This document shows positions 1 through 24,239 of a DNA stretch of 64,000 nucleotides, piece by piece. Origin of the DNA: Vitis vinifera. Its lineage: Eukaryota > Streptophyta > Magnoliopsida > Vitales > Vitaceae. Position 1 is the stretch's first letter, and each line of letters opens with the position of its first letter. The DNA is taken from contig NC_081818.1 of the NCBI RefSeq assembly GCF_030704535.1, forward strand, positions 9,413,501 to 9,477,500, read 5' to 3'. Below the pieces are notes generated by a model, which did no database searches, was not told where the DNA came from, and was given only the letters and a program-made list of their open reading frames with translations. The position numbers and the translations under genes are program-made.

Positions 1-51
1 TTGAACACAAACCCACTTCTTACTTATTTCAATTTTCAAAGAACATCCATG

Positions 52-160
52 TTAACTTCGCAGGTAACTCCACAAATCTCGGAAACTAAACCATTTGAAA
101 CATGCGAGCAGGTTCCCAAGGAAAAACTCAAACAATGATGAAATGGTTTCCCCAAACTAT
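52..160 (-). CDS. Possible last exon of the TSJT1-like gene
   Basis: One minus-strand frame ends in EICGVTCEVNMDVL and a stop. This resembles the family tail (E-I-W-G-A-T-F-K-V). The sequence before it does not match the usual GGLRSFENPKNK segment and no clean acceptor is visible. It may be a diverged or decayed terminal exon. If it is decayed, the whole gene is a pseudogene. Confidence 0.3.
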
Positions 161-190
161 GGATTCAATATGCAAAACATATAACAATAC

Positions 191-683
191 CTTTAGGAAA
201 TGGAGCAAAAGATTTCCCGCAGCCCTTCTTCACAGTCTCTTCATCATCAGAAAGAACAAGATGGCCTTCAGAATCTACTCCCCAGAAGAAGGGAACACTC
301 TCATCAGCATCCTGCATTACATGTGGGTAAAGTTACACCTGATGTAAGCTGCCTTCAAAGAAGGTGATCATAACAATCTGAGAGCAACAAGAGGGATACT
401 TGAAATTGGATAGCAAAATTACTAGCCAAAAGGTTTACTCACAGCAGCTAGAAATGCAGTTCTGTTAGAGCTGTCATAGAGAACAAATGCAAATTTCCCA
501 TGGAGATCTCTCACAACTTGATCTGCAGGATATGGACCTCTATCTCTCAGAGTCCTATAAGCTTCTATGACAATGATCACCTCATTTGTTGTTTTGTTTA
601 ACCCATACTGTTGCTTAAGAAGAGCAACATTCTCAATATGTCCTTGAAACAAGCAGAATATATCATCCACAACTGCAAACAAT
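191..683 (-). CDS. TSJT1-like / aluminium-induced protein (YGL and LRDR motifs), 3' exons
   Basis: Two exons are clear: 683-443 and 311-191. The first encodes the family signature: FAVVDDIFCLFQGHIENV, then QQYGL, then EAYRTLRDRGPYPADQVV and FAFVLYD. It starts after a ttttttgtcag acceptor and ends at a gtgagt donor. The second, after atgcag, encodes VPFFWGVDSEGHLVLSDD and CGKSFAPFPKG and ends at a gtattg donor. The family has a class-II glutamine amidotransferase-like fold (DUF3700) and is induced by stress, auxin or aluminium; the biochemical role is not settled. The expected N-terminal exon is not visible upstream to about 1.9 kb, so the start is unknown: a distant exon or a 5'-truncated copy. 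The gene runs toward the left edge of the window. Confidence 0.8.
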
Positions 684-2289
684 CTGACAAAAAAAGAGAA
701 GATAGATCACAATCAGCAACCGATATGCCAAGTGAAAAGAGGGATAAAGTCAAGTGGTAAGTTGGGAAGAAAGCAACAAGAAAGAAAGAAATTCAGATTT
801 AATCTCTTTCCCTTCTTGTTGTAAGATTCTGATGCTTTACAAATTCATTCAACATTACTTACAGGAAGATGCAATTGTTCAGGATTAGGCATGAATAGAA
901 CAAAATGAGAACAACTTATCAATGGAAATGAAATAATCCAATTTTTTGTTTTCCATGGCATTCAAACACACAAGTCACAGTAATAATGGTGGCATCATAA
1001 TGCAAAAAAATGTAGTTAATGGGGCATTGTGCTAATAATCCAATTTTTTGTTTGCCGAGGGAAGCCAGGCCAAAACCTCACCCTGATACCAAATGATGCA
1101 GGACCACATATACTACTAAAAGCTTAAGCTAATTGTGGGTAGAGGTAGCCCCACATATAAGGCCCAACCAACGTTAGTAATCAGCCGATGTAGGACATTG
1201 GATTTCCGTCCATACTACATCACATTAAAAATAGGTATTATCTATAAAAATAGATTTTTCCCTAAAATAAAAAAGATCAGACATTCAAAGAAATGAAAAA
1301 ATATCAAATTCTGTAAGAAAGCAAAATCAATATGATTTCAAATGCTATGCAAAGCATAGATGGAACATTTCATGGCACATCTAAAACAATGCCCCAAACA
1401 TAGAATCATATAAAATGACTGGATCTGTATTTTGTATTCATTAAAACCAACTGAATATAATATACCATCCACAACAGAACACAAAAGACCAAAAAAAGGG
1501 AAAAGAAAATAAAAGAAACGAGAAAATCTCTAGATTTGGATTATGTGCCTTGGTAAGTGAACCTCAAATATGCTTCACAAAACCGAGTCAAATGGAAAAA
1601 CTTAAGTAATTGAACAAAAGAGATGTTAATAGCTATGATAGAAAAATGACTGATCAAACAAGGAATCTGTGATCCATTTTTGTGGGGTTTGTAGAAAGAA
1701 ATCCCTTAAGGCTCCTTTTGGTTGCCGAGAAATATAAGGAGAATAAAGGAAAACATAGAATCTAACAACAGTCAATTCAACCTGCAAACCAGTAAATAAG
1801 ATTAAGATTTCCCAGCAGCCAAACATATATTAATATGAAAGGGAAATTATAAAAAAAACACTTAACAGGATCTATAAGACTCTTCAAGACTTGGGAATCT
1901 ATCTGGCTCATTGTTTTCAAAATCTGTAGATGGATGTGTAATGGAAATTTAAAGGCTCACAACAATGGAAATCAATGGCTCACAAGTGAGGATTAAAAAT
2001 TAAAAGTTAAAACAGTGCCCTTAATGGGGAAGTCAAAATTGATCCAATGCCATCGGCCTGTTACCAGCAATCTCATTTTCATTTATAGCACCATTCTAGA
2101 ATTGATATTTGAACTTCAAGCCTATGCAAAACACAATGGAGATACTTGTTTTCATAAGACATCCAAATGCACCTCAAATAAAAATGTATATAAAATAGTA
2201 AATAAAGAATGGGTTTAATAAGGAAACCAGAGGTCCAAACTCAATACGATAATTCATGCAAGCAGGCAAGCATAGCTCACCCCAATGTA
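684..2289. other. No gene seen apart from the TRIM-like LTR
   Basis: AT-rich sequence with only short random ORFs. The stretch could hold the first intron of the TSJT1-like gene, but no family-matching upstream exon was found. Confidence 0.4.
1078..1219 (-). mobile_element. TRIM-like LTR remnant with primer-binding site
   Basis: Read on the minus strand, a 126-bp unit (1219-1094) begins TGTAGTATGG and ends GCATCA, i.e. TG...CA. It is followed directly by TTTGGTATCAGGGTGAG, close to the initiator-Met tRNA primer-binding site of plant LTR elements. The LTR carries the CCTACATCGGCTG motif common in small plant LTRs. No second LTR or coding domain is seen, so this is an LTR plus a stub of internal sequence. 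LTR size and PBS fit a terminal-repeat retrotransposon in miniature. Confidence 0.5.
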
Positions 2290-2295
2290 GTTAGT

Positions 2296-2640
2296 AGAAA
2301 CCGGTCGACCGGTTGTATTCGACCGGTTTACCTGGGAACTCGACCGGTAGACACTGGTCTTTTTTTGGTGCGAGTCCCAAAATGGTCAGTGGCTACCGGT
2401 TGCAAACCAACATGCGACCGGTTGATGCTATTTCTCGACCGGTTGACACTGACAATTTTTATCCCCCCGAAACCAAAACCGGGACTTGCTACCGGTTTAT
2501 GCATTGCCTCAAACGGTTGAAACTGCCCAAGTTTTATGGGAAAAAAATATAGTAGGCTGACCATATTCGTAGAGATTATAGTAGATTAGACCAAGGGAGG
2601 AGAATACATACGTTTTACGAGGAACCAATACTCAATATAA
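2296..2640. repeat. ACCGGT-palindrome cluster 1
   Basis: About nine ACCGGT or GACCGGTTG cores occur in about 220 bp (for example accggtcgaccggttg at 2301). A short downstream tail (caaggga-gaga-ta...gaggaa-caa, about 2592-2632) is matched in the same orientation after cluster 2 (about 7490-7530). The two clusters are therefore homologous direct copies. This cluster is the most diverged of the three and lacks the regular 21- or 124-bp spacing. Confidence 0.6.
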
Positions 2641-3087: not shown

Positions 3088-4485
3088 TTAATGGTCTGGT
3101 CCATGAAGCGGGAAGTGGGATCGGAAGAAGACCATCATCTCATCATGTTGGCGTCGTATAACTTGCATACCCTCTTTCACTTCCTCGTGTAAACCATCAA
3201 TGCGATTCTCCAGAGATGTCAACCGTCGGTCATTGGCTAATACAATCTCCTCCAAGCGGGTACCAAGGGACTTAATCTGGGCATTGAGGTTATGTGATGC
3301 TTCAGAGTCATCCGGTCCAATTAGTGAAGGATGATTTGTTGACGCCCTAGCTCTTACACCACCTGTTGACGGTATTTGTGTGACATTTGCTTTTGCATGA
3401 GTTCTTCCCTCTACATCCTGATCTTCATATTCTTCATAGTCGGAGGGCCCATTGTCTGAAGAGACATCAACCTCTGAGGGGGGAACGGAAGACTTCCTTG
3501 CCCATGAACCATCTTTCTTCCGTACAAAATGCATGCGCCGAAGTGAAGCCCGATCATATGTATCAAATGATTTGAGTTTTTTCCCGTCTGTCTCATTGCG
3601 CAAATTGACATCGAAGTACTTGACAATCTTTGTGATAAACATGCCATAGGGGAGAACTGAATCTTCGCTGATTGAACATGCTTTCATATGTTGGAAAATT
3701 ATGTAACCAATATTAACCTTTTTTTCTGTGAGAATGCTGTCAACCAAAAAAGCCTCCAAGAAAGATACATCATCGCGGTGCCCTCCTTTAGGGATGAAAA
3801 TGTACGATATCATGTGATGTAGGATACGACTCAACATAGTCAACAAATGAGAAGTTGGTCTATCAGCTCTCGGGTAACCACATAGCCTTTGTAAAGCTTC
3901 TGCAGGTTTGAAACCTTCCACCATTGGCCACTTCTTAGCTTCATACAAACAAACCCCTTCGTTTGGAATCTCTAAAATCCGACAAAGTGCAGCAACATCA
4001 AAAACGATCTGTACACCGTTAATCGTGGTAGTAATGGGTCCTTCGTCTTTGAATGTCATATTGGAGTAGAAACATTTCACAAGCTTGGGATAAACGAACT
4101 CATTGACGGAGACAATCAGAAGCCAACCCATTCTCGCGAAAAGCACATCGAAATGGAAATAACTGAGCTTTGCAAAAGCAATGTTCCTACCCGGGATTAC
4201 GGTCCGATTCGCAAAGTGAAGATGAAATCGTTGGGCTAGGTCAGGGGTTGCGAACATAGATCGATCAAAGGTGGCCTTCTTACGAACCTCCGGACTTGCT
4301 TCCACGGCCGGACGTTTACCATTGTTGGGGGTGCGTTTTGCTCCATCGGAGGTGTTGTGGGTGCTTTCGCTTGGTTGTTGTCGGTCGGAGGTCTTTTTGT
4401 TGGTCCCGCGCATCCTTGATACCGCCGGCCTCTTCCCTTTCCGACCGGGTGAGGATGCTTCGACCAGTGCTCGTTTTGGGGGCAT
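3088..4485 (-). CDS. Putative plant transposon protein (Transposase_32-like), uninterrupted ORF
   Basis: A single open frame of 465 codons from ATG at 4485. Residues 1-95 are basic and low-complexity (KRALVEASSPGRKGKRP; likely nuclear targeting). Residues about 95-290 resemble the domain called 'putative plant transposon protein' (Pfam Transposase_32): FYSNMTF, then VFDVAALCRILEIPNEGV, then LYEAKKWPMVEGF and EALQRLCG. This is followed by an acidic linker (SDNGPSDYEEYEDQDVEG) and a C-terminal heptad-like helix (LGTRLEEIVLAN, LTSLENRIDGLHEEV). The domain's biochemical activity is not established. The ORF lies between ACCGGT clusters 1 and 2. The family call rests on remembered motif similarity. 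Confidence 0.6.
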   Translation of the reverse strand: MPPKRALVEASSPGRKGKRPAVSRMRGTNKKTSDRQQPSESTHNTSDGAKRTPNNGKRPAVEASPEVRKKATFDRSMFATPDLAQRFHLHFANRTVIPGRNIAFAKLSYFHFDVLFARMGWLLIVSVNEFVYPKLVKCFYSNMTFKDEGPITTTINGVQIVFDVAALCRILEIPNEGVCLYEAKKWPMVEGFKPAEALQRLCGYPRADRPTSHLLTMLSRILHHMISYIFIPKGGHRDDVSFLEAFLVDSILTEKKVNIGYIIFQHMKACSISEDSVLPYGMFITKIVKYFDVNLRNETDGKKLKSFDTYDRASLRRMHFVRKKDGSWARKSSVPPSEVDVSSDNGPSDYEEYEDQDVEGRTHAKANVTQIPSTGGVRARASTNHPSLIGPDDSEASHNLNAQIKSLGTRLEEIVLANDRRLTSLENRIDGLHEEVKEGMQVIRRQHDEMMVFFRSHFPLHGPDH

Positions 4486-4895
4486 GACTATTCAGATGGG
4501 CTTCAGCTATTGCGTGAGGATGAAGAAGACTGAAGTGGAAGACGGACGGGTTCAGGTCTCGCGCGAGGATGAAGAAGAATGGAGTAGAAGACAAAGGGGT
4601 TCAGGGGTAGAACTGGTTTGAACATCGGTCGACCTTCGTGGAAAGACATCCAGTTTATGAACTAATTAAATTTTAATTAACTTAATGTCTTACATTATAT
4701 TTGCTACACTTTTAATGTAAAAGTTTCCATATGAACTGATTAAACCTATAATGGATTAAATGAATAAATATTTTGATGTACCTTAAAGAAATTAATTGAA
4801 GTTAATTTCACAAAATTTATATTAAGAATAATAAAATATGAGAACTTAAGTTAATTAAATCATATAAATTAACTAATCTTTTTGATAGGTACGGT

Positions 4896-5811
4896 ATAGT
4901 GTAATGAACTCACTAAGATATAGTCACACCTAATAGATTAAAATTGTAATTAACTAACATATACTACCATAGGAGCATCAAAATTAATTATGGTTGTATG
5001 ACAAAATGTTCGAATAAGTACAATATACCATGGTGAGTTAAATAAATTAATGAATCTGAATTTATTTAAAATTTTCATAAGTAGAATATCATAACTTATC
5101 TCATTTTACGTAATTAAGTGTAATTAACCTACCTTTCTCATGTCAAGGATATATTATGAAGCATTAATTAAAAATTAATTACGTTAATTCATGGAAAAAT
5201 ATAGTGTAATGAACTCACTAAGATATACTCAGACCTATTAGATTAAAATTGTAATTAACTAACATATACTACCATAGGGGCATCAAAATTAATTATGGTT
5301 GTATGACAAAATGTTCGAATAAGTACGATATACCATGGTGAGTGAAATAAATTAATGAATCTGAATTTATTTAAAATTTCCATAAGTAGAATATCATAAC
5401 TTATCTCATTTTACGTAATTAAGTGTAATTAACCTACCTTTCTCATGTCAAGGATATATTATGAAGCATTAATTAAAAATTAATTATGTTAATTCATGGA
5501 AAAATATAGTGTAATGAACTCACTAAGATATACGCAGACCTATTAGATTAAAATTGTAATTAACTAACATATACTATCATAGGGCCATTAAAATTAATTA
5601 TGGTTGTATGACAAAATGTTCGAACAAGAACGATATACCATGGTGAGTGACATAAATTAATGAATCTGAATTTATTTAAAATTTCCATAAGTAGAATATC
5701 ATAACATATCTCATTTTACGTAATTAAGTCTACTTAACTAACCTTTCTCATATATAGGATATATTAGGAAGCATGATTTAAAAAAAAAATACCATTAATT
5801 GATGAAAAAAT
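4896..5811. repeat. 305-bp tandem repeat, three copies
   Basis: The anchor atagtgtaatgaactcacta begins at 4896, 5201 and 5506, and a degenerate fourth anchor lies at 5812. That gives three adjacent units of 305, 305 and 306 bp. Units are AT-rich and differ at only a few positions (for example ataggagcat, ataggggcat, atagggccat). They contain no ORF. They lie upstream of the minus-strand transposon ORF. Confidence 0.9.
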
Positions 5812-7017
5812 ATAGTAAGTAGGAAACGGTATCAAAACATAGTTACAATAAATTGGCTAAACAACAGTAACAAATGTCAATATTATCAATTAAGTCCATA
5901 TCTCCCCTTTATATTTTCTTAAGTTATACAATTATCCATTTGCAATGGGTGTAAAAAATAACCACATTAGGCTGACTTTCCCAACTGATATAAATGTTAT
6001 ATTTAATGGCACCTAAAAAACTGATGCAAATATCCAAACTATCAACCTCTAAGTGTACCATTGTGGTGGTAGGTTTTCAACATGTGGCAGCCTATTAAAA
6101 AATGTAATAACTCCAGCAACCAACCACATACATATCTTAGTATATATTTGGGGGAGTTTTAGTATTGTAAGAACCTTAGCATCTGAACGAGGGCTGCTAT
6201 TTGTTGGAGAACAGGTGACAAAAAACATCCAGAAGACAAATCTTCAGGTGAAGCTGCATCACACTTGGACCTTCCATTTTAACGGTATGATCTTTAACTC
6301 AATAAAGAATAGGTAAACAAATCCATAATACATTTTTTAAGCTTAATGCCTTCATCTTTGAAATGGATGGGGGAATATTTCGAAAACCTAATAGTGATTT
6401 TTAAATGGTATGTATTGATGTTAAAGAGTTTGGATTTTGATTGTCTAAAGCACATTGTTAGTAATATGCATCAGTGATCTGTTGAACAGTTGAGATTAAT
6501 TTAGTTAATATAAGTGAGTCATGTTGGCTGTAAAAATCACAACATCATCAAAATTATAGGGTAATACATATTCAAATGACTTAAAAAGAGATAATCAACC
6601 TTAAGAAATGTGTATTATTGACTCCCAATATGGGGTAAGTTTGGAATAAGTTTGGCGGTGTACCCAAAAGCTTCCGTGCTTTTAGATAGAATTATATAAA
6701 AGTCATTTTCCATGTTTTAACATATGTCACTGGCAACATTAAACATAAAGCAATTAGCCTAAATAGGGCAACCTCCTTAGGCTAATTGTTTCCGTGTTAT
6801 TTTAGCCTAAACCGATCCATGTTTCCGTGTTATTTTAAAGAAAGTGGATGAGAGGTATTAATTATTGTGACTGGCAAACTCCTTAAACATGGCAACTAAG
6901 ATTAATGTTGGAAATTTTGTTAACATAGTATGCCTAAATAGGGCAACATTATAACGTTCTGATAAGGAATGAAGGCCTTAATGAAATCAACAACGAAAAG
7001 AAACAATTAGCTAATCG
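5812..7017. other. AT-rich, no gene recognised
   Basis: Only an 87-codon plus-strand ORF (6053-6316) without recognisable motifs. Short direct repeats occur, such as cctaaatagggcaac near 6760 and 6930 and gtttccgtgttatttta twice at 6790-6840. Confidence 0.4.
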
Positions 7018-7400
7018 GTTTAAATATTAAAACAGTGAATACCGGATGAGGAATTTCTCAACCGGTTGAGAAAATTCCTCAACCGGTAGCAACTGGTTAA
7101 AAAAATACTCAACCAGTTGAGGAATTTCCTCAACCGGTTGAGCCATTTCCTCAACCGGTTGAGCCATTTCCTCAACCGGTTGAGCCATTTCCTCAACCGT
7201 TGAGCCATTTCCTCAACCGGTTGAGCCATTTCCTCAACCGGTTGAGCAACTTGTATGAACCGGTTGTTTTTTTTTTTACCAGTGCCTACCGATTGAGGAA
7301 TTTCCTCATCCGGTTGACGAAATTCCTCATCCGGTAGCTACTGGTTTAAAAAGTCCACATTCGGTCGACCGGCTTACTTCGACCGGTCGATAGATCTTCT
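7018..7400. repeat. AACCGGTT-palindrome cluster 2 with a 21-bp minisatellite
   Basis: From about 7108 to 7255 a 21-bp unit (TCAACCGGTTGAGCCATTTCC) repeats about six times; one copy has a 1-bp-shorter core (aaccgttg). Each unit holds the perfect 14-bp palindrome CTCAACCGGTTGAG. From 7278 to 7345 lies a 68-bp near-palindrome running from ACCAGTGCCTACCG to CCGGTAGCTACTGGT. The array creates a spurious minus-strand ORF of repeated WLNRLRK heptads, which I do not regard as a gene. Confidence 0.9.
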
Positions 7401-8139: not shown

Positions 8140-10949
8140 ATGATGCAATCGGTGAAGGAGAAAACAATCAAGCGGGAGTTTGAAGTGAAGGAGGAGGACG
8201 TCGTCAATGACGATGCATTTATCGGTGCCACTTACGACCTGGGTGGAAACGGTTTGAAACAGAAGGTGTTGAAGGGTATTTCAGATGAAGAAGTCTACAA
8301 ATTGCAATTCGATCGCATAGATGAGGCTGAAACATTTTACAACATGTTAGCTAGAGTAGCCGGATTTAGTATTCGAAAAGATGATTTGAAGCGAGACAAG
8401 AATGGAGATATAATATCTCGAAAGTGGGTGTGTTCTAGAGAAGGGCAGCGAGCGACAAAGTTTATTGAAAATGACAAGCGACAGCGTGAGCCACGATCAT
8501 TGACTAGGGTTGGATGTGAAGCTGCATTTCGTGTAGGCTTGAATAGGAAAGATGGAAAGTGGATTGTAAAGGAATTTATAGGAGATCATAATCATAATTT
8601 GGTCGATGCTATCAACACACAATTCCTTCGGTCTCATCGAACAATAAGTAATCCCGATAAGGCACAAGTTGATGTTTTGCGTAAAGTAGGTGTTAAAACC
8701 ACACAAATTATGGACTATATGGTAAAACAATCAGGGGGACATGAGCACGTCGGTTTCACACAAAAAGATATATACAATCACGTTGATGCAATGCGTAGAA
8801 GTGAAATTAAAGACGGTGATGCAGAAGCGGCATTGGCTTATTTGTGTGGAAAGGCAAAAATGGATTCTTCATTTTTTTATAAATTCAACATTGATGAAGA
8901 AAGTCGACTAGCAAATTTGTTTTGGGCTGATTCAACTGCTTGAATGGATTATGCGTGTTTTGGAGATGTCCTAGCATTTGACACAACCTATAGGACAAAT
9001 GCCTATAAAAAGCCTCTAGTAGTGTTGGTCGGTGTTAATCATCACCATCAAACTGTTGTATTTGGTTGTGCGTTATTGATAGATGAAAGTGTTGGGACAT
9101 ATGAATGGGTGTTGGAGACATTTCTTGAAGCCATGATGAATAAGAGACCCATATCTGTTGTAACCGATGGGGATAAAGCTATGCGTAAGGCAATTAAAAA
9201 AGTATTACCTGATACGTGTCATCGATTGTGTTCATGGCATTTGCAACGAAATGCATTCACGAATGTGCATATGAAGGACTTCTCAAGCATATTTGCAAGG
9301 TGCATGTTCATGCGTGGGAATGAAGAAGAATTCGAAAAGGTTTGGCATGAAATGGTTGCAAATTTGGGACTTAATGAGAATCGTTGGGTGACCGAGATAT
9401 ATGGGAAACGTAAAAGATGGGCAGAGGCGTATTTACGTGGAAATTTCTTTGGAGGGATGAGAACCACACAAAGGTGTGAGAGTATGAATGCATATCTAAA
9501 TAGATTCTTAAAAATTCGCTTGCGACTGTATGAGTTTGTACAACAATTTGATAGAGCCATACTGAGAATACGGCAAAACGAGGCAAAGGCAGAGTTCGAG
9601 TCGAACAATTCTTCACCCGTGCTTTCAACCAAACTAGCCATACTTGAAAATCATGCTGCGACGGTATACACAAAAGAATCTTTCCTTAAATTTCGTGAGG
9701 AGATGAAAAATGCTGAGTTATTCTTTGTGGTTGGTGTTGTAAGTGATCATTCAATGCGGGCATACACATTATCTAAGTTTAGACACCCGAACTTAAATTG
9801 GGAAGTACAATTTTGCCCGGATATTGTAACATTAAAATGCTCATGCATGATGTTTGAGTCAATTGGCATCCCATGTTGCCACATGGTGGTGGTTATGAAG
9901 GTGGAGCATTTGGAAGAGATTCCTCAGTCATGTATTATGAAGAGGTGGACAAAGTTAGCAAAGGTGTATACAAGATCAGTACCAGTGAATGAGACGGATA
10001 ACAACATGGATCGGTTTGTACGATATGGTTCATTGAGTTCGATGTGCAACAAGCTCTCCTACTTTGCGTCAGATACGTCATCTTCATTTATAGAGGCCAA
10101 AAATGAAATACAAAATTTGACGGCGAGAATGGAGGAACTCTATAACTATAATTTGAAAGGGAAGAAAATAACATCAGATGGAGCGACAGGTACTAACCAA
10201 GTTCGTGATCCAAATATTGTGAAGACTAAAGGGAATCCAGGCAAAGTGGCAATGAATGTTCAAAAGGGAAGACGATGCAGTCGTTGTAAAAGAGTGGGTC
10301 ACACAATTCGAAAGTGTCCAGAAGCTACAACCCTCAAAATGCTCAGCCGGGTTATATGGTATGTCATATTCAATACAAATTGCCCCTAAGATTAATTTTT
10401 GTAGGTGTACTAACATAAATGACTAACATAATTGTTTTGATGGCATTATGAATACGTAGGAGGAAACTAATTTGTCTTCCCAATGTGACATTCAAAGGGA
10501 AATGATGCCTTCAACAAATTTATCAGTTGACATTTTTGCAACCTTACATGTATGTACAATAGGCTTGTTATATAATTTCCAAACATTGATAACATATAAT
10601 TCAATAATAATTGACAACACTTAATTATTGAAACATGCAGGGAATGTTAGGGGAGCAGTTGCCGAATGACCCATCTGACATGTACATAGATTGGGGTGAA
10701 CTTAATAATGTAAGATCAGAATGAAGAAACACTTTTGACATGAATTTCAGATATGCATTATTTAATGATTAGGTTTAATTAATTGGAATGGAATTGGGTA
10801 GCTGAAAAAAACAATGAAATGTGCATGTGCAGATAGCAAGAGTTCAGCAACATGAACAAAGTATGTCAACACCATGTGAAGGTGGGGATCCAAACAAATA
10901 TCCAAATGAAAAGGATATGCAACCTTTTTTTTATTCCTTAGCGGAGTAA
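8140..10949 (+). pseudogene. FAR1/FRS-type Mutator-like (MULE) transposase, two probable breaks
   Basis: Exon 1 (8140-10358) encodes a FAR1 DNA-binding domain (AETFYNMLARVAGFSIRK, CEAAFRV, then DHNH), a MULE DDE domain (LAFDTTYRTN, VVTDGDKAMRKAI, TQRCESMNAYL) and a SWIM zinc finger (CSCMMFESIGIPCCHMVVVM). It ends in a CX2CX4HX4C knuckle (CSRCKRVGHTIRKC). Small 3' exons at about 10460-10549, 10641-10709 and 10833-10949 join in phase to a stop at 10947. A TGA at 8941-8943 interrupts the frame where FAR1 relatives usually have Arg (STA-stop-MDYACFGD). Near 10,320 the frame appears to slip: CPEATTLKML in one frame, NPQNAQPGYM in the next, and the latter joins exon 2 in phase. It therefore looks recently inactivated. 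It is convergent with the Ulp1 gene at 12.6-16.4 kb. Confidence 0.85.
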
Positions 10950-11459
10950 GGGATGGTAGGTATTAAATCAGTATTTATATTAGTTGACGTTATCACTTCC
11001 ACTAATGTGTACTTGTAACTTAACTATTTAATGAAAAGTTTGAATTTTGATCAAGAGTCAAGTTGATTGATAGAATGCAATATCCTCTACATTTATAATT
11101 TAATTGATAACAAGGGATAAAATGATTGGTAAATGGAGAAACCGATTCATTTATATCATGTCGAAAAAAACGGTTAATTATGCGGAATTAATTAAATTCA
11201 ATTGTGGTTAAAGTTTGACAATTAGGTGGTTATAAGTTAACTATAGGAAAGTAATCAATATGATGTAATTCACATGAAATAGGTAAATGTAGTGATTTTA
11301 CTCAAAATGGGTAAATCGTAGTTAGGTAAATTGTAATGCCAGTTTCCATCAATTTCAAACCTTATAATTGAACTTAATGGTACATTGTCGAATGTTTCCA
11401 TAGTGAAAAGTTATTGGTACAACTCATAGCATACCCTTTTTGTGCACAATAGCATTGCA
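10950..11459. other. 3' flank of the transposase gene
   Basis: AT-rich with no ORF or repeat. Probably 3' untranslated and intergenic sequence leading into the palindrome array. Confidence 0.4.
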
Positions 11460-12350
11460 GGAGGCAACCGGTTGAGGAAATTCCTCAACCGGTTGAGGCA
11501 TTTTTTACCAGTGGCTACCGGATGAGGATTTTCCTCAACCGGTTGAGAAAATTCCTCAACCGGTAGGTACTGGTTAAACAAATCCTCAACCGGTTGAGCA
11601 AATGGCCATCAACCGATTGAGGATTTTTGTGACCAGTGGCTACCGGTTGAGAAATTTTCTCAACCGGTCGAGGAAATTCCTCATCCGGTAGCCACTGGAA
11701 AAAATGCCTCAACCGGTTGATGGCCATTTGCTCAACCGATTGAGGATTTGTTTAACCAGTACCTACCGGATGAGGATTTTACTCAATCGATTGAGAAAAT
11801 TCCTCAACCGATAGGTACTGGTTAAACAAATCCTCAACCGGTTAAGCAAATGGCCATCAATCGGTTGAGGATTTTTGTGACCAGTGGCTACCGGTTGAGA
11901 AAATTTCTCAACCGGTCGAGGAAAATCCTCATCCGGTAGCCACTGGTAAAAAATGCCTCGACCGGGTGCTCAACCGGTTGTGCCAATCCGGTCGACCGGT
12001 CCTAGCCGTCCTCGACCGGTTTAAGTTGGCTAACAATATACGCAACCGGTTGAGCAAATTCCTCAACCAGTTGATGCCCATCTTCACCCGGTTGCCACTA
12101 GTTAAAAAAACATGAACCGATTGAGCAAATTCCTCAACCAATTTGCTATATTTGTCAAACAGTTCCCACTGGTCAAATCATTCGTCAACCGGTTGAGACA
12201 ATTTCTTCATTGATCAACCACTATCCACAACTGAAAATATGAGAAATGTTCTCAACCGGTACGAATAATGCGTATGCCTATGAAAAATGGACATAGATAA
12301 ATCGTTGGACTGGTTCTTATCGGTTGAACGGCATTCGTCAGCCAGTGTAG
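11460..12350. repeat. AACCGGTT cluster 3: array of four 68-bp near-palindromes at about 124-bp spacing
   Basis: Four hairpin-capable units lie at 11507-11574, 11632-11699, 11755-11822 and 11880-11947. Each starts ACCAGT(G/A)(G/C)CTACCGG and ends in its inverted complement, with a CTCAACCGGTTGAG-like palindrome at the centre. Spacers of about 57 bp themselves hold two inverted CTCAACCGGTTGAG-type elements around ATGGCCAT. Further palindromes continue, less regularly, to about 12350. The array lies between the 3' ends of the convergent transposase and protease genes. Confidence 0.9.
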
Positions 12351-12622
12351 TAATGTACTAACTATATATTGTTAGTATAGATAAATGAATATTTACAGAT
12401 CTGATTAGGTTAAAGATCGTACAAAATCACACATGTCGAACATGAATGATACCAATATATTACAATTTCATTTTGACGACCATATTGAAAGAAGAGTATT
12501 TGGATATTGAAATAAAATGGACTTAATCATTAATAATGTATGGTCATCGAAGCTCACAACTTCCCAATAAACATGACGATATGTGGATATGGAAATGATA
12601 AATATTTGAAAAATTAAAAATA
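12351..12622. other. 3' flank of the Ulp1-like gene
   Basis: AT-rich; no feature seen other than the fading end of the palindrome cluster. Confidence 0.3.
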
Positions 12623-15600
12623 TCATAATAATAATTTTTTCATTGCTCGTGTCGACGTCTTTGTACAAACAATAGCCACAATGGTTTGTTTTTCTCTATT
12701 TCCCTCGTGTAAAACTAAATCACATGCTATTTCTCGACGTATTTTCATAGAATTACAAAAGTCGGAGCTCGTCATCGGATCACCATTTTTGAATCTCTGC
12801 ATATGTCTAATGACATGCACTCCACAGTCCCACCTAAGAAAGAGAAAAGAAAAGCAAAACAACTTATTCAATGGTTGTCTAATTATACCTCAGGAAAAGA
12901 ATAGTAATGTGAGTTATGTATTCATACTAACCCATTCTCTTGGGTCGGAATCGAAGGAGCCCAATCAATGGAGAATTGGAAGACATCTTTCCCTATGTCA
13001 GATAGTTTGAAGAACGTTTGACAAAATTCAACCTAATTTATTATGAAAGTGTTAATAAATATGGAAGAGGAAAAAATAGAATAGAAGAAAAATATAAACA
13101 TGAAAGCATACCACTGTTTTGACACTCTGAAACCGGAACTTGTCTCGATTCTTCGATTGTAATGAGTCCAAAATTTGGGTATGAGAGTTTTTGAAGTCAA
13201 TGACGCACAGATACCAATGACCAGGGCATTCGTCATGCATTGGAATAAATAGCTGTAAAGTTAGAAAAACAATATATATGAGTTGGGGCAAAAAAAATCT
13301 ACTATATTATAGGTGAAAACAATATCTATTCTAAATTTCATATATGCAATTAAACATTAGAAATAATTACTAACCTTCTCGCAATCATCCAATTCACTAA
13401 TGTACTTACTAACGATGGATGTTTTTCTATCGAAAAAAGGATGAGGACTCCCGCACAAAATCATTTGCTAAAAAGAAAACATAATACGAACATTACTATA
13501 TTGTACTTAATATGTAAGTAAACAACAAGAGAAATATGAGCTTACTGAAAATGTCGTGGGAAGATAGCATCTTATACTTCGTATGCCTATGAATTGTCTT
13601 TCAAAATAATTTAGCTTTGAGGCTTCTAAATTTATTACCTGTTGTTGAACAATAACTTCAATAAATTTATTTAACTAATATAGGATGCATTTGATATAAA
13701 TGAAGTAGGTACTTACAACATCCATCAAATTTTGTCTAGGACGTAAGCATGCAAAATCTCCACGAACTCCATGTTCATGACCAAAGTCAACAAGAAGCTC
13801 ACTAAAATAATAATATGTTCAAACAAACTTCAGTAAATTGGAAGCATATGAAGGCAAAAATTGTAACAACACATCTATGAATGTTTTAGACGCGACAAAC
13901 CTTTTTGACAACGCTTTATTGAAAACATAATCAGCGACAAGAGATTGAAGTACATTGAATGATTGAGTATCCACCACGTCTTCACGAATGGACATGGGGA
14001 TTGACTAATTCGAAAACAAGACATAATTATTAACTACATATGTTAAGTATCAAAAAATAAGAACAATGATATTAAACTATTTGTATTATACCTCTGATGC
14101 TTCACGTTTTACCATCTTCCTTGATTTCTGTACAAACGGGGAGACCTTGAATTTACTTGGTTTCCTCTCCCTTGATGAACGTGTTTTCATGACATGATTA
14201 GGATAACCACATAGTGCTCGTAATGGTTCCTAATATGGAAAATATCAGTAATATACATCTATTTACTATGTAATGGTTAAGTAGTTGTAAAGAAAATAAT
14301 TTTTTCTTTTATATGATACATACCTTTCCATAATCTCTTCTACTCCTTTTTATTGGAGGTGGTAAGATATTTTCATTTTTGTCTGGAATGATATGCACTT
14401 CAATTGATGTAGCACATGCATCTTCATTCTTTTCATTAAAGTCCTCAGTGCATAACTTCTCATTTGACAAAGTGTGAAGATAATGTTCATTCACATTCAT
14501 ATTGTTCGTATCTTCCAAACTTCTCTCGCATGAGAGCATGTCATTCTTCGTTCCTTCCTCGTGCATTCTCAAAGGTTTTCCGCTTGACCTAAGGAAGAGA
14601 CCTTTCACTTGAGTATAATTCTCCTCAAATTTAGCCAAAATTTTATCACAACTACTACTACTTGCACCATAAGCCATATCAAGTAGATGTGTCTTTAATT
14701 GTTGAAAGGTTTTATCCATCTCCATTAACTTCCCACCATCAACCTAGTGATATATACGAACATGATTAATAACATCATAATACAAAGGTTCAATGCTAAT
14801 ATAGATAGTCACGATGAATATTGTAAAACACTTACTCGTTTAATAACATCTTTGTTTAGATTGGATACAAATTTCTCATCGTCCTCATTCTCACTTGCCA
14901 TTGTCGTTGCATTTCCATCAACGCAATCCCTTATCTCATTTTCTATCACCCATATTTTGAGCTACAATATATTCATCAAAATATAATACATATCAGATTT
15001 TAAATCACTAAAAACTTAAATCAATAGTAAACGACTTTCAAAACTATAACTTACATCCTCATTTGCATATCCACCAAGTTTTTTCAATCTTCGTTTCCTG
15101 TCCAATACTTCATCATCTCTCCAAGCAGTAATCCGAGGAGAAGGTCGAGTATATAGCGGTAGGAATTTCTCTTCAAAGGATATATGCTCGTGGTAGAATA
15201 ACTACGAGTATATTTGACATAGATATATAGTTAGTTCATAAATTATATTAAAACAAAATCGTATTTCACTATGATGTAAATTAATTACCATTAAAAACAA
15301 TAAGCAACCGCAAACCCCACTTTGTTGTTTCTTCTTAAACTCTTCAATCCCGTGCACAAGATAGGACAACACAAATTCTGCCCAATTCATCTTCTTTATT
15401 GAATCGATGTCTTCCACAATATGTAAGAAAGAGCGATTCACAAAAAGCTTCATTGTTGGGCACAATAATGCACCCAACACAAATAATACAAAACGAACTT
15501 TAAAATCGTTTCCACCCTCTTTATCCTCCCTAATTTGATTTTCTAACATCACTAATGGCAATCGCCCTTTTTTATCACAATATTTTTTACATAAATCATT

Positions 15601-16407
15601 CTTATGACCAACATCTTTGTTCATGCCAATCTTTAACCCTCTTGCCCTCAATCCCATAATAAATTCAACATCAATGGGGGATAATTTGATACAAGTATTA
15701 TACAACTGTAACATATAAGTGTTCGGATTAAAACTATTTATCAACCAAAGACATAACCCATGATCTATTTTCCTACATCGAAGTTGCAAGAGGCTACCAA
15801 ATCCTATTTCTTCTATGGCCGCCTTTTGCTTTGGTTCTAAATTTTCAATCACTCTAATAACTCGCTTGGGGGAGCATCGAGTCTGAAGATATAACTGAAA
15901 AGATACACAAACATCAAACATGTTTACATTAATATAATTTCCAACAAATACATAAGTAAAGAAATTAAATATTCATTACAAATAAAAATTACCTTCAGAA
16001 CCACACCCTTTTGAAGTGAATATTGTTTTGAACTTTCTTTGGACTTTGCCATGAAATTTTCTTTTTCTACTTTTGAAAGTGCATTCTACTTCTTGCCCAA
16101 TTTTTTCCTCAACTACAGTAATTGGTCACATAATTTAAATTCTAATGTTAAAATGTAATTATATTAGACGTAGCAAAATTACTCCTTACATCATCATTTA
16201 TCTTCACTCCTTTGTCCTTCTCTTTCATCATGGCTAATTGATCGTTACTACAAAACAATTTCAAACAAATTTAACAATAACAACCACAAAAAATAAATTA
16301 AAAAACATATTATTTTACACATTTCTATTTTCCCTTACTAGTAATGTATCCAAGCGCCGATAGGCCTCTTTGGATTTCTAATAACTTCAAGACCATCGCA
16401 TTCGCTC
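12623..16407 (-). CDS. Ulp1/SENP-type (C48) cysteine protease, transposon-associated ULP-like gene
   Basis: Exons inferred from splice sites: 16407-16339, 16247-16190, 16107-15993, 15894-15289, 15201-15055, 14961-14836, 14743-14324, 14229-14092, 14004-13901, 13801-13717, 13638-13546, 13467-13375, 13252-13112, 13032-12932 and 12833-12623. From 15894 to the stop every junction is in phase (754 residues). The big exon (IEEIGFGSLLQLRCRK, then LCLWLINSFNP) is the N-terminal region common in plant Ulp1-family transposon proteins. The protease part shows the triad His (CPGHWYLCVIDF), Asp (QILDSLQ) and Cys (WDCGVHVIRHM). Ulp1 enzymes process or remove SUMO; this subfamily is carried by Mutator-like elements such as Kaonashi. 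The first coding exon is not found, and the junction 15993/15894 does not fit in phase, so either another splice site or one break lies there. Confidence 0.85.
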
Positions 16408-16780
16408 CTAAAAATTAAATCAAAGCATTTAAGTCAATTTTTATAATATGATTTCAAATATAATAAATCAAACATACTTTCACCACCACATTATCTCAAC
16501 ATAAGTTTTTTTTCACATTTCAATAAATTTTATTTTTATATCTTACTACAACCAACCAAATGCCAATTAAAATACAAATACCATTACAACTACAACATCC
16601 TCCCTAAATATCTTTACATTTAAAATGATGACAAAATTAACATACAAATTTTTTTCAATGTTCAATAATCTAACCACACTCTTTTTCTATAATGTAATCA
16701 ATCCATAAATCTAACAAAAAACATGAAATATAATGGACACAATATTGTAAAACACATAATTACTACTCACATTTTTTTCC

Positions 16781-16790
16781 CTTTATATAG
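16781..16790 (-). promoter_or_regulatory. Candidate TATA box of the Ulp1-like gene
   Basis: The minus strand reads CTATATAAAG, a good plant TATA box, about 375 bp upstream of the first recognised exon and followed by a purine-rich leader. No other core promoter motif was found between it and the gene. Inferred from motif and position only. Confidence 0.35.
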
Positions 16791-17129
16791 AACTCGCCAA
16801 ATAATTAGGATACAAGCGCCTTTTGAGTAACAAACAATTGTGTCTTTCTCAGCTTTCTTTTCCTTAGTACTACACGTCCTCTTCTTCTTCTTCCAGCTAC
16901 GTCTTCAATTCGGGTTTTTAAACCATTAAATTTAGAACCTGAAAACACCCCCTTACACCTCTTAAACAAAATATAAAATATGAAGAAAACACAAGGGTTA
17001 TGAAGATTCCACTAAAATTCTCCATGTGAAAGAACAGAAATTCTCCTTGTGAAAAAATGCAGGGGTAGGGGGGAGAGAAAGCAAAAATTCAGAAAATTTA
17101 CATAAAATCTTCGAGAAGAATAATCTAGC

Positions 17130-17450
17130 AGAAAAAATAGCTGACCTGGACATCGGGAGAAATGAAGTCTAAGACTCGGATCTTGGCACCGACCTCGCCC
17201 ACAATCCTGAGCTCGCGGTCCTTGAGGGAGACTTCTTTGATGAGGTCAAGACGTTGACTTGGAGGAGGTTGGCCCGGTTCACGCCAATGGTGGTCTCCAC
17301 CCACCTGTGAAGACGTCTTTGATCCCGGCTGACGGCGAAGGTGGTCTCCACCTAGCTGTGGAGACGTCTTTGATAAGGTCTGCGACGTCGGCCTCGAAGA
17401 GGTTGGCTCGGTTGAAGCCGACCGTGGTCTTCACCCAGCTGTGGACAATC
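17130..17450 (-). pseudogene. GC-rich captured gene fragment with internal tandem duplication (unidentified)
   Basis: On the minus strand two segments are homologous: 17445-17361 (VKTTVGFNRANLFEADV) and 17310-17222 (VETTIGVNRANLLQVNV). A third partial copy lies between them. The lower copy continues in another frame as LKDRELRIVGEVGAKIRVLD and FISPDVQ, ending at a possible gtcagc donor near 17146. GC content is far above the surroundings, and a C-rich leader-like stretch (17750-17450 on the minus strand) precedes it. It looks like a piece of a host gene captured and partly duplicated, as in Pack-MULEs. I do not recognise the parent gene. Confidence 0.45.
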
Positions 17451-17489
17451 ACTGGAGAGAAAAATGGGAAAAGGGAGAGAAAACAAAGA

Positions 17490-17680
17490 TGACAGGGGGA
17501 AATGGGTGAGCTATGGAGGAAGTCGGCAAACAAAGATGAGGAAGTCGGCAAATGGGTGAGCTGAGGAAGTCGGCTATGGAGGATGCGCGAGACACCCAGC
17601 TATGGAGGGGCGGGAAACGGGTGAGCTGAGGAAGTTGGCTTATGGAGGATGCGTGAGATGGAGGGGAAGAGAGCAAGACA
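17490..17680. repeat. Short degenerate repeats (GAGGAAGTCGGC / GGGTGAGCT)
   Basis: The phrases gaggaagtcggcaaa, gggtgagct and atggaggatgcg(c/t)gaga recur several times in about 190 bp. They form an irregular minisatellite upstream of the captured gene fragment. Confidence 0.55.
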
Positions 17681-17929
17681 GCAAATTAGGGGGGAAAAAG
17701 GGGAAAATGATGCCGAATAGGGGAGAGAACGGGAGGGGAAGGTACCCGGGAGAATTTTTTTTGAAAATTTTTTTTTCTTTTTCATTTTGGATGGCTGAGA
17801 TTTAATCATTTTCATCCAATGGATGGAAAAAAATGGAGGCATGGTACCGAAGGAGGTATTGTAGACTTTTCCTATATTTGGATGACTGGAGTGATAATAA
17901 GAATGGAAAGAAAATCCATTAGGAGACAT

Positions 17930-18500
17930 TTTAATTTATTTGATGCAATTTATTTTTAAAAATATTTTTCAAAAAATAAAATTTTTTAATTTGATTTTAT
18001 AAAAAAAATTACAAATTTAATTTATATAATATAAACTAAATTTCATTGAAATATTATTAAAAATAATTTTTCAATTACTAATAAATTAAAAAAGTCAATC
18101 ATTTTTAATAAAATATGAATAGTAATACTATAATAAAATAGTAAATTATATATATTTTTTATAAATATTCTAAAAATATGAATATTAACATTTATCAATT
18201 TTGTTAAAAATGAATAATAATAAATTAAAAATAATTATTATTAATACTATTTTATTTGAAATGAAATTAAAAATAAATAAACTTTTTAAGATATAAATGA
18301 TTCAAGTTGTTTATTACTTGTACAAGTCTTGTAATTAATTCAGGATAAAGTGTTTGAACATTTTTATTTAGTCTATAATTAATTAATTAATTTTTTGAAT
18401 TCTAAATAATTCTTATTCCTAATTTAATTTAAGATTTATTTATCTAACTAGAAAACTCAAAAAATATAATTGTATGTATAAAAGAACAATAAAGTTGCAA

Positions 18501-18540
<40 letters not shown>

Positions 18541-20400
18541 TAGTTTTTATCTACTATTTTTTTAGAGAGTACATATATTTTTTAAGTTTTAAATTATTTT
18601 AAAATTTTATTAAACTCATTAATAAATTCAATATAAAGTGTCGCTAAATTTGAAATTCATTTATATAGGGAGAAGGTAAAAAAAAATGGTTCTTTATATA
18701 GAAGAAAAATAATAGAGTCATTTTATACTAATTTTTATTTATAAATTTCTAATATATTATTGTATCACTATTTGATTTTTAAATTATTTTTCAAAACTAC
18801 TAGATTTATTAGTAAATCCAAGGTTTCTTTTACTTAATTTGGAATATATTTAGTTAATAAAAATTATAATTATATATGAAGAAAAAATTAGTAAAATCAT
18901 TCAAAATGAATTTGGGTTTGTGAATTTTTAGTGTTAATTTAATTAATTTTGAGTTTTTTGATTTTCTAATACTAATTCAATCAGTTTTTGAGTTACGAAT
19001 AATTTTTAAAAATGAATCTTTTTTGAATTAAGAGTTGATTAATTTGGAGTTTATTTGTTTCATAAAAATTTTTAGAGAATTTAAAAGAAAATTCATAAAA
19101 ATGGATATAATTTAAAAGAAGATAGTATTTTAAGATTTTTTTTGTTTTGATATGGGGTGATAGAGAGGATGAAAAAAAAAAAAAACAAAGACATCATGTT
19201 TTACTCTTTCTAATTTTGTTGTTTTTATTTTTTTTCTTATTTCTTTGTATATTTCTTTTAAATTAATAAAAATAACTTTTACTTGTTTCCTTTTTTTTTT
19301 CTATTTCATTTTATTTTTAAAAATTATTACTAAAAGATAATAACCAAACCGTGTTATAAATTTTAAAAATAATTTGTTGTTTTTAAAAATAGAACATTGT
19401 TTTTAAATTACATCCTCAAATAAGATTTTATCATTTAGCAAAAAAGAAAAAAAACTCTCAAAAAAGATGTTTTTATAAAATGAAAATAAAAAATTATTTT
19501 AAAATATGTGTAATTTGAGAATTTTTTAAAAATGAAAATAAAAAATATTTTGAATCATATGTATGTATATTATTGTCAATTTATTTTTGTATTCTCATTT
19601 CCATTATTGCTAACATTAAAATTGAAACAAATAGTCATTCTAATATTATATTATTCATTGCATTTAAATACAAAAAATTAAAATCATCAAATTCATTTCT
19701 ATTTAAAAAGATATATGAATGAAAACAAAATGGAAATATCCATTTCCATATATAAAATATAATCGGTTTCCTCATTAGAGCTTGAAAAGGAACTCCCAAA
19801 AAAATGATCATTTTCACTCTCATATTAAAAATAATTGTTAAATATTTGATTATTTAAAAATAGATATTCTAATTAAATAATTTTACATTTGAAGATCTAT
19901 CCTTGACAAAAATATCTAAATGTACAATAAATATTTTCAAATTTTAAAATAATTTCATAATTAAAATTAATAATTTTTCTTTAATACAAGCTCCTCATAT
20001 TCACTTTTCAAGGGATTCCATTTCTCATCAAGTTTATAACGGATTTGATAATAATTTTAAGAAGTATTTTATATATAAAAAACAAAATTTTGAAGTGATT
20101 CCTAAAATCACAATCAAACTTACTCTTACGAAACTCATCTTATCGGTATCAAGATGATACTTTTATTTTAATGGTGATTCAGATTGCTATAACAACAATC
20201 CCAAAGGGCCTAAAGAGCAAGAGAAGAACGAAGAAGCCGAGGAATGAAAAATCAATGTTGTTTGATTTAATAAAGCCCTTGGGGTGGGAATGGCTGTGAA
20301 GTCCATCTGTACTGTTGGGTTATTAGCTGAACCAAAGCAAGTCTCGTAAGCCCATTATCAGTGTCAACTCCGATTTCCTCTGTGTTTTTTGACGGCAAGC
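17930..20400. other. AT-rich intergenic DNA with an (AT)n microsatellite
   Basis: Very AT-rich with only spurious short ORFs. An uninterrupted AT dinucleotide run of about 33 bp occupies about 18504-18536. No conserved coding or terminal-repeat signal seen. Confidence 0.6.
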
Positions 20401-23040: not shown

Positions 23041-24239
23041 GTATTTTATGCTTAATAGTCCTTTCTATGGCATCTTATTTTCCCTTGTCAATTTAGGTAA
23101 TGTTTTTCTTCAAGTAGAAATTCTCAGGATGTGCTAGTCAAGCAATTGGGTCAACAAGTCCCCCTTCCGCTTCAACTCCTAAGTGCTATAATCTATAACC
23201 CTTATTCTTACAGCACTTTACCAGCAAATATATTCACCTTTGATAGGAATGATTGTCTCTTGTTCTAAATTTCAATCTTTTAATGGAAGGCAAGGAAAAT
23301 AATGCTTACCTAATAGGTATTTTATAAAATACAGAAGATAATACTATTATTTTAGTCTTTGAAGCTCTTCATCAAAGAGTTGTACCTTCATGAAACAAAC
23401 TTCAATAATATTGTATATTTCTCCTTTATATCATCATTCACCATTAGTATTGTATGCTTCATGCATTATACATGAAGGGCAGCGGGACAATATGGTGCAT
23501 ATGTTATGGATACATGCCTCTGGTTTGCTTAGTCTTTAGCTCAAATAGCAATTCGCTTACCATAACAAATGGCATTCGAAATGATTATAGGGAAAGATGC
23601 AGAAAATAATCTCAACTTATTTTTTATTTCCATTGTCCACTTACAAAGTACTTATAAAAAGTTGCTTAGTTCTAGCTCAATTCAATCTTTTTTCATTGAT
23701 GTTTAATGAGAAAACTGTTGCAATCCTCACAGAGCCTGTGTGGTTTTTGTTGGTGATTTATCCACATACCACTAGTTATGGAGAGGCTTGGTGTAAAATT
23801 CTCTTGCCAATTTATTCTGGCTTATCAATGCAATGTGAATGGGTTGACCCAACCCACTCAGGGCTTACTATAACACGAAGGCAATGTATGTTGGACATCC
23901 TGACCCAACTCCAACCTAACATATAACCATGTTAGAGCTAACATTGAATAATGCTATTCCTTCATACTATGATCCATGGAAATTAATTATATTTTATAAA
24001 ATTTAGCTGTCAATATTTTTTTTTAATTAAAAAATGCAAATGCCTAAAATTATGAGAAATCAGACCTTATATTCAACATTTTAGCAGTTATATAAATGCA
24101 TGACATGACACTAATTCCATTGAGATGTCAATTATCATTAATACATGTTAAATTATGATTATTGACTATACATATTTCTTGCAGTTCTGTTTCTTGTCCT
24201 TGTACGTTTGATATATGCAATTACTGCAATATATTACTG
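23041..24239. other. Intron 1 of the NLR pseudogene
   Basis: AT-rich, with no conserved coding signal. A 109-codon ORF at 23597-23926 has no recognisable motif. Confidence 0.6.

What the first reader, a model, noticed from the sequence alone, without database searches (positions are those of the whole stretch)
8140..16407. MuDR-like convergent pair: FAR1-type transposase facing a largely intact Ulp1 protease
The plus-strand FAR1/MULE transposase ends at 10,949 and the minus-strand Ulp1-like gene ends at 12,623, tail to tail. Maize MuDR has the same geometry (mudrA and mudrB convergent), and Kaonashi-type MULEs are known to carry ULP-like genes. Here the protease keeps His, Asp and Cys and 12 in-phase exons, while the transposase has a stop and a probable frameshift. 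Selection may have kept the protease after the transposase decayed, or the two may belong to one element whose ends I could not find.
Basis: partly seen in the sequence, partly recalled or inferred. Interest (0 to 1): 0.7.

Follow-up and report, generated by a model that had tools for sequence, protein, structure and literature searches.

The report
Multigene jumping element carrying a protease
The two facing genes are parts of one large, many-copied plant transposon that carries its own transposase, a SUMO-protease-like gene and other genes; the kind is known from grapevine, but the protease's partner domain and a set of repeated DNA motifs suggest a testable role in escaping silencing.

Summary
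Confirmed: a FAR1-type MULE transposase (8140-10949, +) faces a 13-exon gene (16052-12623, -) joining a plant mobile domain (PMD) to a Ulp1 protease with H/D/Q/C intact. The pair is one element: 29 of 37 listed protease copies have the transposase 1.0-2.7 kb away, convergent; 19 of 37 also have two upstream PF20167 modules; 14 of 14 rows of a diverged subfamily (57-64% aa transposase) keep the arrangement. The right end is 17872. The left end lies beyond the window and was not found; the window copy spans at least 22 kb and holds host-gene-like segments. The transposase's stop and frame change are individual decay: 5 of 20 long close-family matches have no stop, and three of those copies also keep an intact protease. 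So "protease kept after transposase decay" is not supported; "one element" is. ULP-carrying Jittery-like MULEs are reported in grapevine (PMC2528002), and PMD-protease fusions are mentioned in print (PMC7156037). Not seen in the passages read: this PMD-Ulp1 gene in a MULE, or noncoding arrays of a palindrome (core CAACCGGTTG) varying in number between copies, as VANC targets do in Arabidopsis VANDAL elements. I infer an accessory, possibly anti-silencing, factor. No expression, methylation or binding data.

The parts
1..1928 (-). fragment of a host-type gene (DUF3700, aluminium-induced protein), read as captured; continues left of the window
   Evidence: ORF 422-682 Pfam DUF3700 E 2.6e-45; 97-98% to C5:5995117-5998103, ending at 1928; the 10 other copies aligned have different sequence here, while four further copies carry 939-1805 of it
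2286..2530 (.). left motif array, loose ACCGGT/GGTTGA repeats
   Evidence: 8 ACCGGT at 2300-2491, two palindromes within 2 mismatches
3088..4485 (-). 465-aa ORF, PF20167 'putative plant transposon protein' (PPT1)
   Evidence: E 1.7e-22; this module lies upstream of 26 of 37 listed protease copies, within 25 kb
4895..5816 (.). 305-bp tandem repeat, about 3 units; number seems to vary between copies
   Evidence: variation judged from overlapping BLAST pieces
7041..7390 (.). array of palindrome CTCAACCGGTTGAG upstream of the transposase gene
   Evidence: 8 of 26 window matches; 1-9 in 16 of 18 copies examined, 0 in two
8140..10949 (+). FAR1-MULE-SWIM transposase gene, broken in this copy: TGA at 8941-8943, frame change near 10333; coding exons 8140-10358, 10460-10549, 10641-10709, 10833-10949
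11463..12260 (.). palindrome array in the noncoding gap between the convergent genes
   Evidence: 16 of 26 window matches; 3-19 in 29 of 30 copies (window included), 0 in L030, which lacks this part
12623..16052 (-). PMD-Ulp1 protease gene, 13 coding exons, 774 aa; PMD mainly exon 15894-15289; catalytic H, D in exon 13252-13112, Q in 13032-12932, C in 12833-12623
17872..17872 (.). right end of the element; read inward from the end GGAAAA(G/T)TCTACAATACC; flank TATATTTGG would be the 9-bp target duplication, left partner not found
   Evidence: 21 of 29 other copies show this terminus with different flanks

Best explanation
It is the right-hand part of one autonomous-type, FAR1/Jittery-class Mutator-like element that has multiplied in a plant genome (probably grapevine: 495.6 Mb, matches on C1-C19; the name is inferred). 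Shown: the element carries at least four genes, PF20167 twice, the FAR1-MULE transposase, and convergent to it a PMD-Ulp1 gene; this order is repeated in many copies, and the convergent pair also in a subfamily with about 60% transposase identity; host-gene-like segments sit between conserved modules on the left. Inferred: the transposase moves the element; the PMD-Ulp1 protein is a standing accessory gene and not debris, acting in the nucleus, where the Ulp1 half removes SUMO (or a related tag) from a host chromatin or silencing protein, or from the transposase. Inferred further and less sure: the protein, or a partner, is brought to the element by the CAACCGGTTG arrays in its noncoding DNA and lowers silencing there, the way VANC proteins act on short tandem motifs of VANDAL elements.
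For: One element: of 37 listed protease copies 29 have the transposase 1.0-2.7 kb away and convergent, 26 the PPT1 module (within 25 kb), 21 the PPT2 module (within 35 kb), 19 all four (the lists are capped, so absences are not proven); 37 of 41 transposase copies with a convergent PMD exon within 10 kb and 0 in any other arrangement; 14 of 14 diverged transposase rows (57-64%) convergent with a PMD exon 54-58% identical. Shared right terminus with different flanks in 21 of 29 other copies. Multiplication: the closest protease-region pairs differ by 0.34-0.8%. Coding: 13 exons, canonical splice sites, H/D/Q/C aligned to Ulp1. Longer-term constraint on PMD-Ulp1: 15 of 23 diverged PMD rows have no stop at 54-58% identity. 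Arrays: 26 motif matches in the element part of the window, 0 in 17873-64000, 0.06 expected; present in 29 of 30 between-gene loci, 0 in the protease gene and right end of the same 30; core positions 3-12 change least among 410 instances. Model for the mechanism: VANC binds short motifs that form tandem repeats in noncoding DNA (PMC5735166, PMC10398659, passages read); KIU are Ulp1-bearing VANC genes (review PMC13317346, passages).
Against: No expression, protein, binding or methylation data. The left end and a target-site duplication were not found, so mobility of whole units is inferred from copies. Within the close family the protease shows only weak constraint (NG86 dN/dS 0.56 over all pairs; omega 0.69 for singletons and 0.70 for variants in 3 or more copies), and 24 of 30 copies are broken. 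8 of 37 protease copies have no adjacent transposase in the lists. The arrays could serve the transposase or a PF20167 protein instead. Core CpG decay in the arrays (27 of 820, about 3.3%) is close to that of CpG in the protease region (210 of 5017, 4.2%; non-CpG 1.4%), so nothing shows that arrays are unmethylated.
Confidence: 0.6

Rival explanations
1. The protease is a passively carried, transduplicated host gene fragment with no role in the element; it persists because copies are young.
For: Weak constraint between close copies; 24 of 30 copies broken; the element carries other host-like segments; Benjak et al. discuss ULP in grapevine MULEs as transduplication (PMC2528002, sections 8 and 10 read).
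Against: The PMD-Ulp1 gene, in the same convergent place, is kept in a subfamily at about 60% transposase identity, with 15 of 23 PMD rows free of stops; 13 exons with splice sites and four catalytic residues intact in the window copy; the left-hand host-like pieces differ between groups of copies, this gene does not.
Confidence: 0.2
2. The protease has been taken over by the host (domesticated) and kept while the transposase decays.
For: In the window copy the protease is intact and the transposase is not.
Against: The state differs copy by copy: 5 of 20 long close-family transposase matches are free of stops, and three of those copies (protease loci L012, L021, L024) have an intact protease too; the six intact proteases among 30 are scattered repeats, not one conserved locus.
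Confidence: 0.04
3. The palindrome arrays are binding sites of the transposase (FAR1 domain) or of a PF20167 protein and have nothing to do with the protease.
For: Arrays also lie beside the PF20167 gene and the transposase gene; subterminal repeats serve transposases in other superfamilies (recalled).
Against: No binding data either way; the arrays seen are internal and vary strongly in number, which is the pattern reported for VANC targets (PMC5735166) rather than for transposase sites at the ends.
Confidence: 0.35

Closest known systems
Jitvine-1 and Jitvine-2, Jittery-like MULEs of grapevine (Benjak et al. 2008, PMC2528002)
   Same: Jittery-class transposase; the paper says some Jittery-like grapevine families carry ULP downstream of the transposase; no TIR listed; 16 and 35 copies with most of the transposase; 11.9 and 14.4 kb
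   Different: Sequence identity with them could not be tested; the sections and passages read do not describe PMD, PF20167 genes or motif arrays, and the window copy spans at least 22 kb
Kaonashi / KIU elements and VANDAL-VANC systems of Arabidopsis (PMC2528002, PMC13317346, PMC5735166; passages)
   Same: ULP gene in reverse orientation to the transposase; multi-gene MULE; short motifs in tandem in noncoding DNA
   Different: Transposase class differs (FAR1 here); N-terminal domain here is PMD; anti-silencing is tested there and only guessed here
PMD-bearing MULEs of grasses and Amborella (Ikeda et al. 2017, PMC5418596; passages)
   Same: A PMD carried by a MULE; the authors speculate on anti-silencing
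   Different: There the PMD is fused to the transposase; here it is fused to Ulp1 in a separate convergent gene
Genic PMD-protease fusions (mentioned in PMC7156037, passage)
   Same: A PMD fused to a protease domain
   Different: The passage speaks of genic PMDs and gives no example of Ulp1 in a MULE; whether those are such elements was not checked
Maize MuDR
   Same: Convergent two-gene geometry (recalled)
   Different: Second gene here is PMD-Ulp1; transposase is FAR1-type; no matching TIR found on the left

Membership tests
Mutator-like element (MULE) | MULE transposase domain | tested here: met
   PF10551 E 1.8e-27
Mutator-like element (MULE) | 9-bp target-site duplication | tested here: inconclusive
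   Right flank TATATTTGG known; left end not reached
Mutator-like element (MULE) | terminal inverted repeats (not present in all MULEs) | tested here: inconclusive
   Right terminus defined; among 74 hits within 2 mismatches none was seen by eye at the left side of the copies; the left end itself was not found
Jittery/FAR1-class MULE | FAR1 DNA-binding domain joined to MULE and SWIM | tested here: met
   assignment to Jittery rests on this and on recall, no tree was built
Jitvine-1/2 | sequence identity to the published representatives | not testable with these tools
   Repbase and the listed accessions were not available to me
MuDR | mudrB as second gene | tested here: inconclusive
   Second gene matches only PMD and Peptidase_C48 in Pfam; no direct comparison with mudrB was made
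Kaonashi (KI) MULE | Ulp1 domain gene opposite in direction to the transposase | tested here: met
Kaonashi (KI) MULE | mudrA/VANDAL-type transposase lineage | tested here: not met
   FAR1-type by domain content; no tree was built
VANC anti-silencing system | short motif in tandem arrays in noncoding DNA of the element | tested here: met
VANC anti-silencing system | protein binds the motif and removes methylation in trans | not testable with these tools
   needs experiments
Ulp1 (C48) protease | His, Asp, Gln, Cys catalytic residues in order | tested here: met

The most novel reading that the evidence does not exclude
A second, independently built anti-silencing system in a FAR1-class MULE: a PMD-Ulp1 protein that finds CAACCGGTTG arrays in its own element family and strips SUMO-dependent silencing there, with the arrays and the protein diverging together between subfamilies, using a domain (PMD) whose host versions silence transposons.
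Probability: 0.25. Interest if true: 0.78.

Novelty: new variant of a known kind. Interest (0 to 1): 0.45.

Why it matters
ULP-like genes recur in plant MULEs, and the precise role of the Ulp1 domain there is called unknown in a 2026 review (PMC13317346, passages). This family offers many young copies, three with both genes free of stops as far as tested, a second subfamily for comparison, and a short palindrome that can be tested directly as a target. Host PMD proteins (MAIN, MAIL1) act in transposon silencing (PMC5418596, PMC7156037, passages), so a PMD fused to a SUMO-type protease inside a transposon is a natural candidate for counter-silencing.

Tried and rejected
Left end. Three candidate ends were rejected. 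TATATTTGG at 6142 looked like the partner of the right flank, but other copies share sequence on both sides of it; further chance copies of this 9-mer lie in L068 and L070. Position 1924 is a boundary shared by many copies, but sequence left of it is shared within two groups of 6 and 4 copies, and copies meet again further left. L070:2067 is shared by many copies, but three of four left flanks fetched agree with each other beyond it. The left TIR was sought with GGAAAAKTCTACAATACCTC at up to 2 mismatches; by eye the 74 hits are right ends or other elements.

Empty site. C5:5995117 and C14:24326733 match the element's variable segments up to exact boundaries. They were considered as empty sites and not accepted, because a search with 17500-19500 did not list them (only 40 of 2066 candidates were scored there). 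Capture is the better reading but its direction was not tested.

Selection. NG86 alone (0.56) would have suggested purifying selection; a count against the intron mutation spectrum gave about 0.7 for both singletons and shared variants, so no strong claim is made. PMD-exon variants shared by 3 or more copies gave 0.25 on 6 N and 7 S only (p 0.014, one of several segments and classes tested). Mean dS (0.039) exceeds intron divergence (0.029), unexplained.

Rows dropped before counting. From, three pieces of copies already listed (40 rows to 37). From, five pieces (45 to 40) and one copy added (41). For PPT1 I used 34 rows and left out rows of other segments and second pieces. For PPT2 I used 28 rows and left out second pieces and the rows at 74-81% identity. 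The diverged set is the 14 transposase rows at 57-64%, a second piece of one (55%) left out; rows at 65-79% were not in it. Its PMD partners were sought among 23 rows picked by hand. In one search the PMD list was 70 other rows chosen by hand from the 151 matches (count), leaving out second pieces and weaker rows.
Full report
What is there. The transposase region holds a FAR1 domain, a MULE domain, a SWIM zinc finger and a weak zinc knuckle. In the window copy a TGA splits it at 8941-8943 without change of frame. Near 10333 the frame changes relative to most copies: 18 of 20 long close-family matches (at least 700 residues, 83% identity or more, window included) stop at residue 728-733 of 749, while C17:90997 and the shorter match C15:15990838 run on like the window, and the three 3' exons are open in a phase that the first exon does not reach.

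The facing gene has 13 coding exons from 16052 to 12623, all introns GT..AG, and a 774-aa product without a stop. Its N-terminal third is a plant mobile domain (PF10536, E 2e-11) and its C-terminal part a Ulp1 protease (PF02902, E 5.4e-15). Against yeast Ulp1 (1EUV, E 3e-8) the catalytic His, Asp, Gln and Cys align.

One element. Searches of the window's own genome gave 37 copies of the protease region and 41 of the transposase region (dropped pieces are listed under Tried and rejected; the tool scores only the best candidates, so counts are lower bounds). Of the 37, 29 have the transposase 1.0-2.7 kb away in convergent order, 26 have the PF20167 module seen at 3088-4485, 21 have a second PF20167 module that lies left of the window at L068:85-1671, and 19 have all four. 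Most PF20167 distances are alike (about 6-7 and 11-17 kb), but I allowed up to 25 and 35 kb, and a few lie outside (for example 20.6 and 26.3 kb in one copy, 34.1 kb in another). From the other side, 37 of 41 transposase copies have a convergent PMD exon within 10 kb and none has one in another arrangement. A diverged subfamily, 57-64% identical in the transposase and 54-58% in the PMD, shows the convergent pair in 14 of 14 rows.

Ends. At 17872 most copies stop together and run into different flanks; 21 of 29 other copies show the terminus. Six of the remaining eight (L015, L017, L018, L020, L021, L022) change sequence at 16489, which looks like another right-hand version. The left end was not found. 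Left of 1924 ten copies fall into two groups with sequence different from the window; copies meet again in the second PF20167 module and part again left of L070:2067. In the window copy the variable stretches are 97-98% identical to a DUF3700 gene region on C5, of which four other copies carry the part 939-1805, and 95% to a region at C14:24.33 Mb. I read these as captured host segments; direction was not tested. From L070:2067 to 17872 the window copy is 22,006 bases. That copies multiplied recently follows from 0.34-0.8% difference between the closest pairs.

Decay and selection. Of 20 long close-family transposase matches including the window, 5 have no stop. Of 30 protease copies including the window, 6 are intact by start, stops, frame and splice sites. 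Three copies are on both lists (protease loci L012, L021, L024). The catalytic Cys is changed in 3 of 30 and the Gln lost to a stop in 1 of 30. NG86 dN/dS is 0.56 over all pairs and 0.44 among the intact six; by segment 0.39 (PMD exon), 0.73 (linker), 0.52 (protease). Against the intron mutation spectrum omega is 0.69 for singletons (231 N, 97 S, p 0.003) and 0.70 for variants in three or more copies (58 N, 24 S, p 0.15); stops are 24 singletons, 4 in two copies, 1 in three or more. This is weak constraint, as expected when most copies die after insertion. The stronger sign of function is that 15 of 23 PMD rows of the other subfamily have no stop at 54-58% identity.

Motif arrays. The palindrome CTCAACCGGTTGAG occurs 26 times in the window at up to 2 mismatches, all between 2434 and 12197 and outside the genes described here; 0.06 are expected, and none lies in 17873-64000. 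Between the convergent genes 29 of 30 copies have 3 to 19; the one without, L030, lacks this part; the protease gene and right end of all 30 have none. Upstream of the transposase gene 16 of 18 copies have 1 to 9. Over 410 instances the outer positions 1 and 14 change most (105 and 137) and positions 3-12 little (8-32 each), so the core is about CAACCGGTTG (the 2-mismatch limit caps all positions alike).

Mechanism. Reported for Arabidopsis, from passages read: VANC proteins of VANDAL MULEs bind short motifs that form fast-changing tandem repeats in noncoding DNA and remove silencing marks (PMC5735166, PMC10398659). [quoted passage not shown] Host PMD proteins act in silencing, and PMD in MULEs was guessed to serve anti-silencing (PMC5418596, passages). 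The present element has a similar set of parts in another transposase class. My reading: transposase as mover (about 0.95), PMD-Ulp1 as a maintained accessory protein (about 0.6), anti-silencing through the arrays (about 0.25). Only the anatomy is shown.

Known or new. Benjak et al. 2008 (PMC2528002; sections 8 and 10 and passages read) report two multi-copy Jittery-like grapevine families, 11.9 and 14.4 kb, and ULP downstream of the transposase in some Jittery-like families. The window element probably belongs to one of them; this could not be tested. PMC7156037 (passages) mentions genic PMDs fused to a protease domain, so the domain pair as such is in print. Searches for PMD with Ulp1 and MULE, and for Jitvine, listed no paper that I recognised as describing this gene in a MULE, the two PF20167 genes or the arrays; most hits were seen as listings only, only CC-licensed papers are held, and van Leeuwen 2007 and Hoen 2006 were not read.

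Noticed in passing
window 44077-46908 (-), with LRR-like ORFs at 21523-22743, 24215-24865, 32955-33677, 40359-42199, 43214-43864: Cluster of NB-ARC-LRR (RPS2-like) plant disease-resistance-gene sequence right of the element; the 943-aa ORF has NB-ARC E 1.9e-43 (only 44077-46908 and 21523-22743 were scanned, the rest judged by eye).
   Followed up: partly
window 52803-54363 (-): A second, different MULE transposase, in two overlapping ORFs in different frames, MULE E 2e-18 and SWIM E 3e-9.
   Followed up: partly
window 4895-5816: 305-bp tandem repeat inside the element whose unit number seems to differ between copies.
   Followed up: partly
L068:85-1671 and L070:1-2069 (left of the window): Second PF20167 ORF of 528 aa (E 1.4e-24), and a gene-like segment 95% identical to C14:24326733-24328816.
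   Followed up: partly
window 16489-17500: Right-hand region that six of 29 other copies replace from 16489 on, GC-rich by eye at about 17150-17500; possibly another acquired piece.
   Followed up: no
window 26512-27240 (-): ORF that by eye looks like the end of a Copia polyprotein; Pfam gave nothing at 0.001.
   Followed up: no
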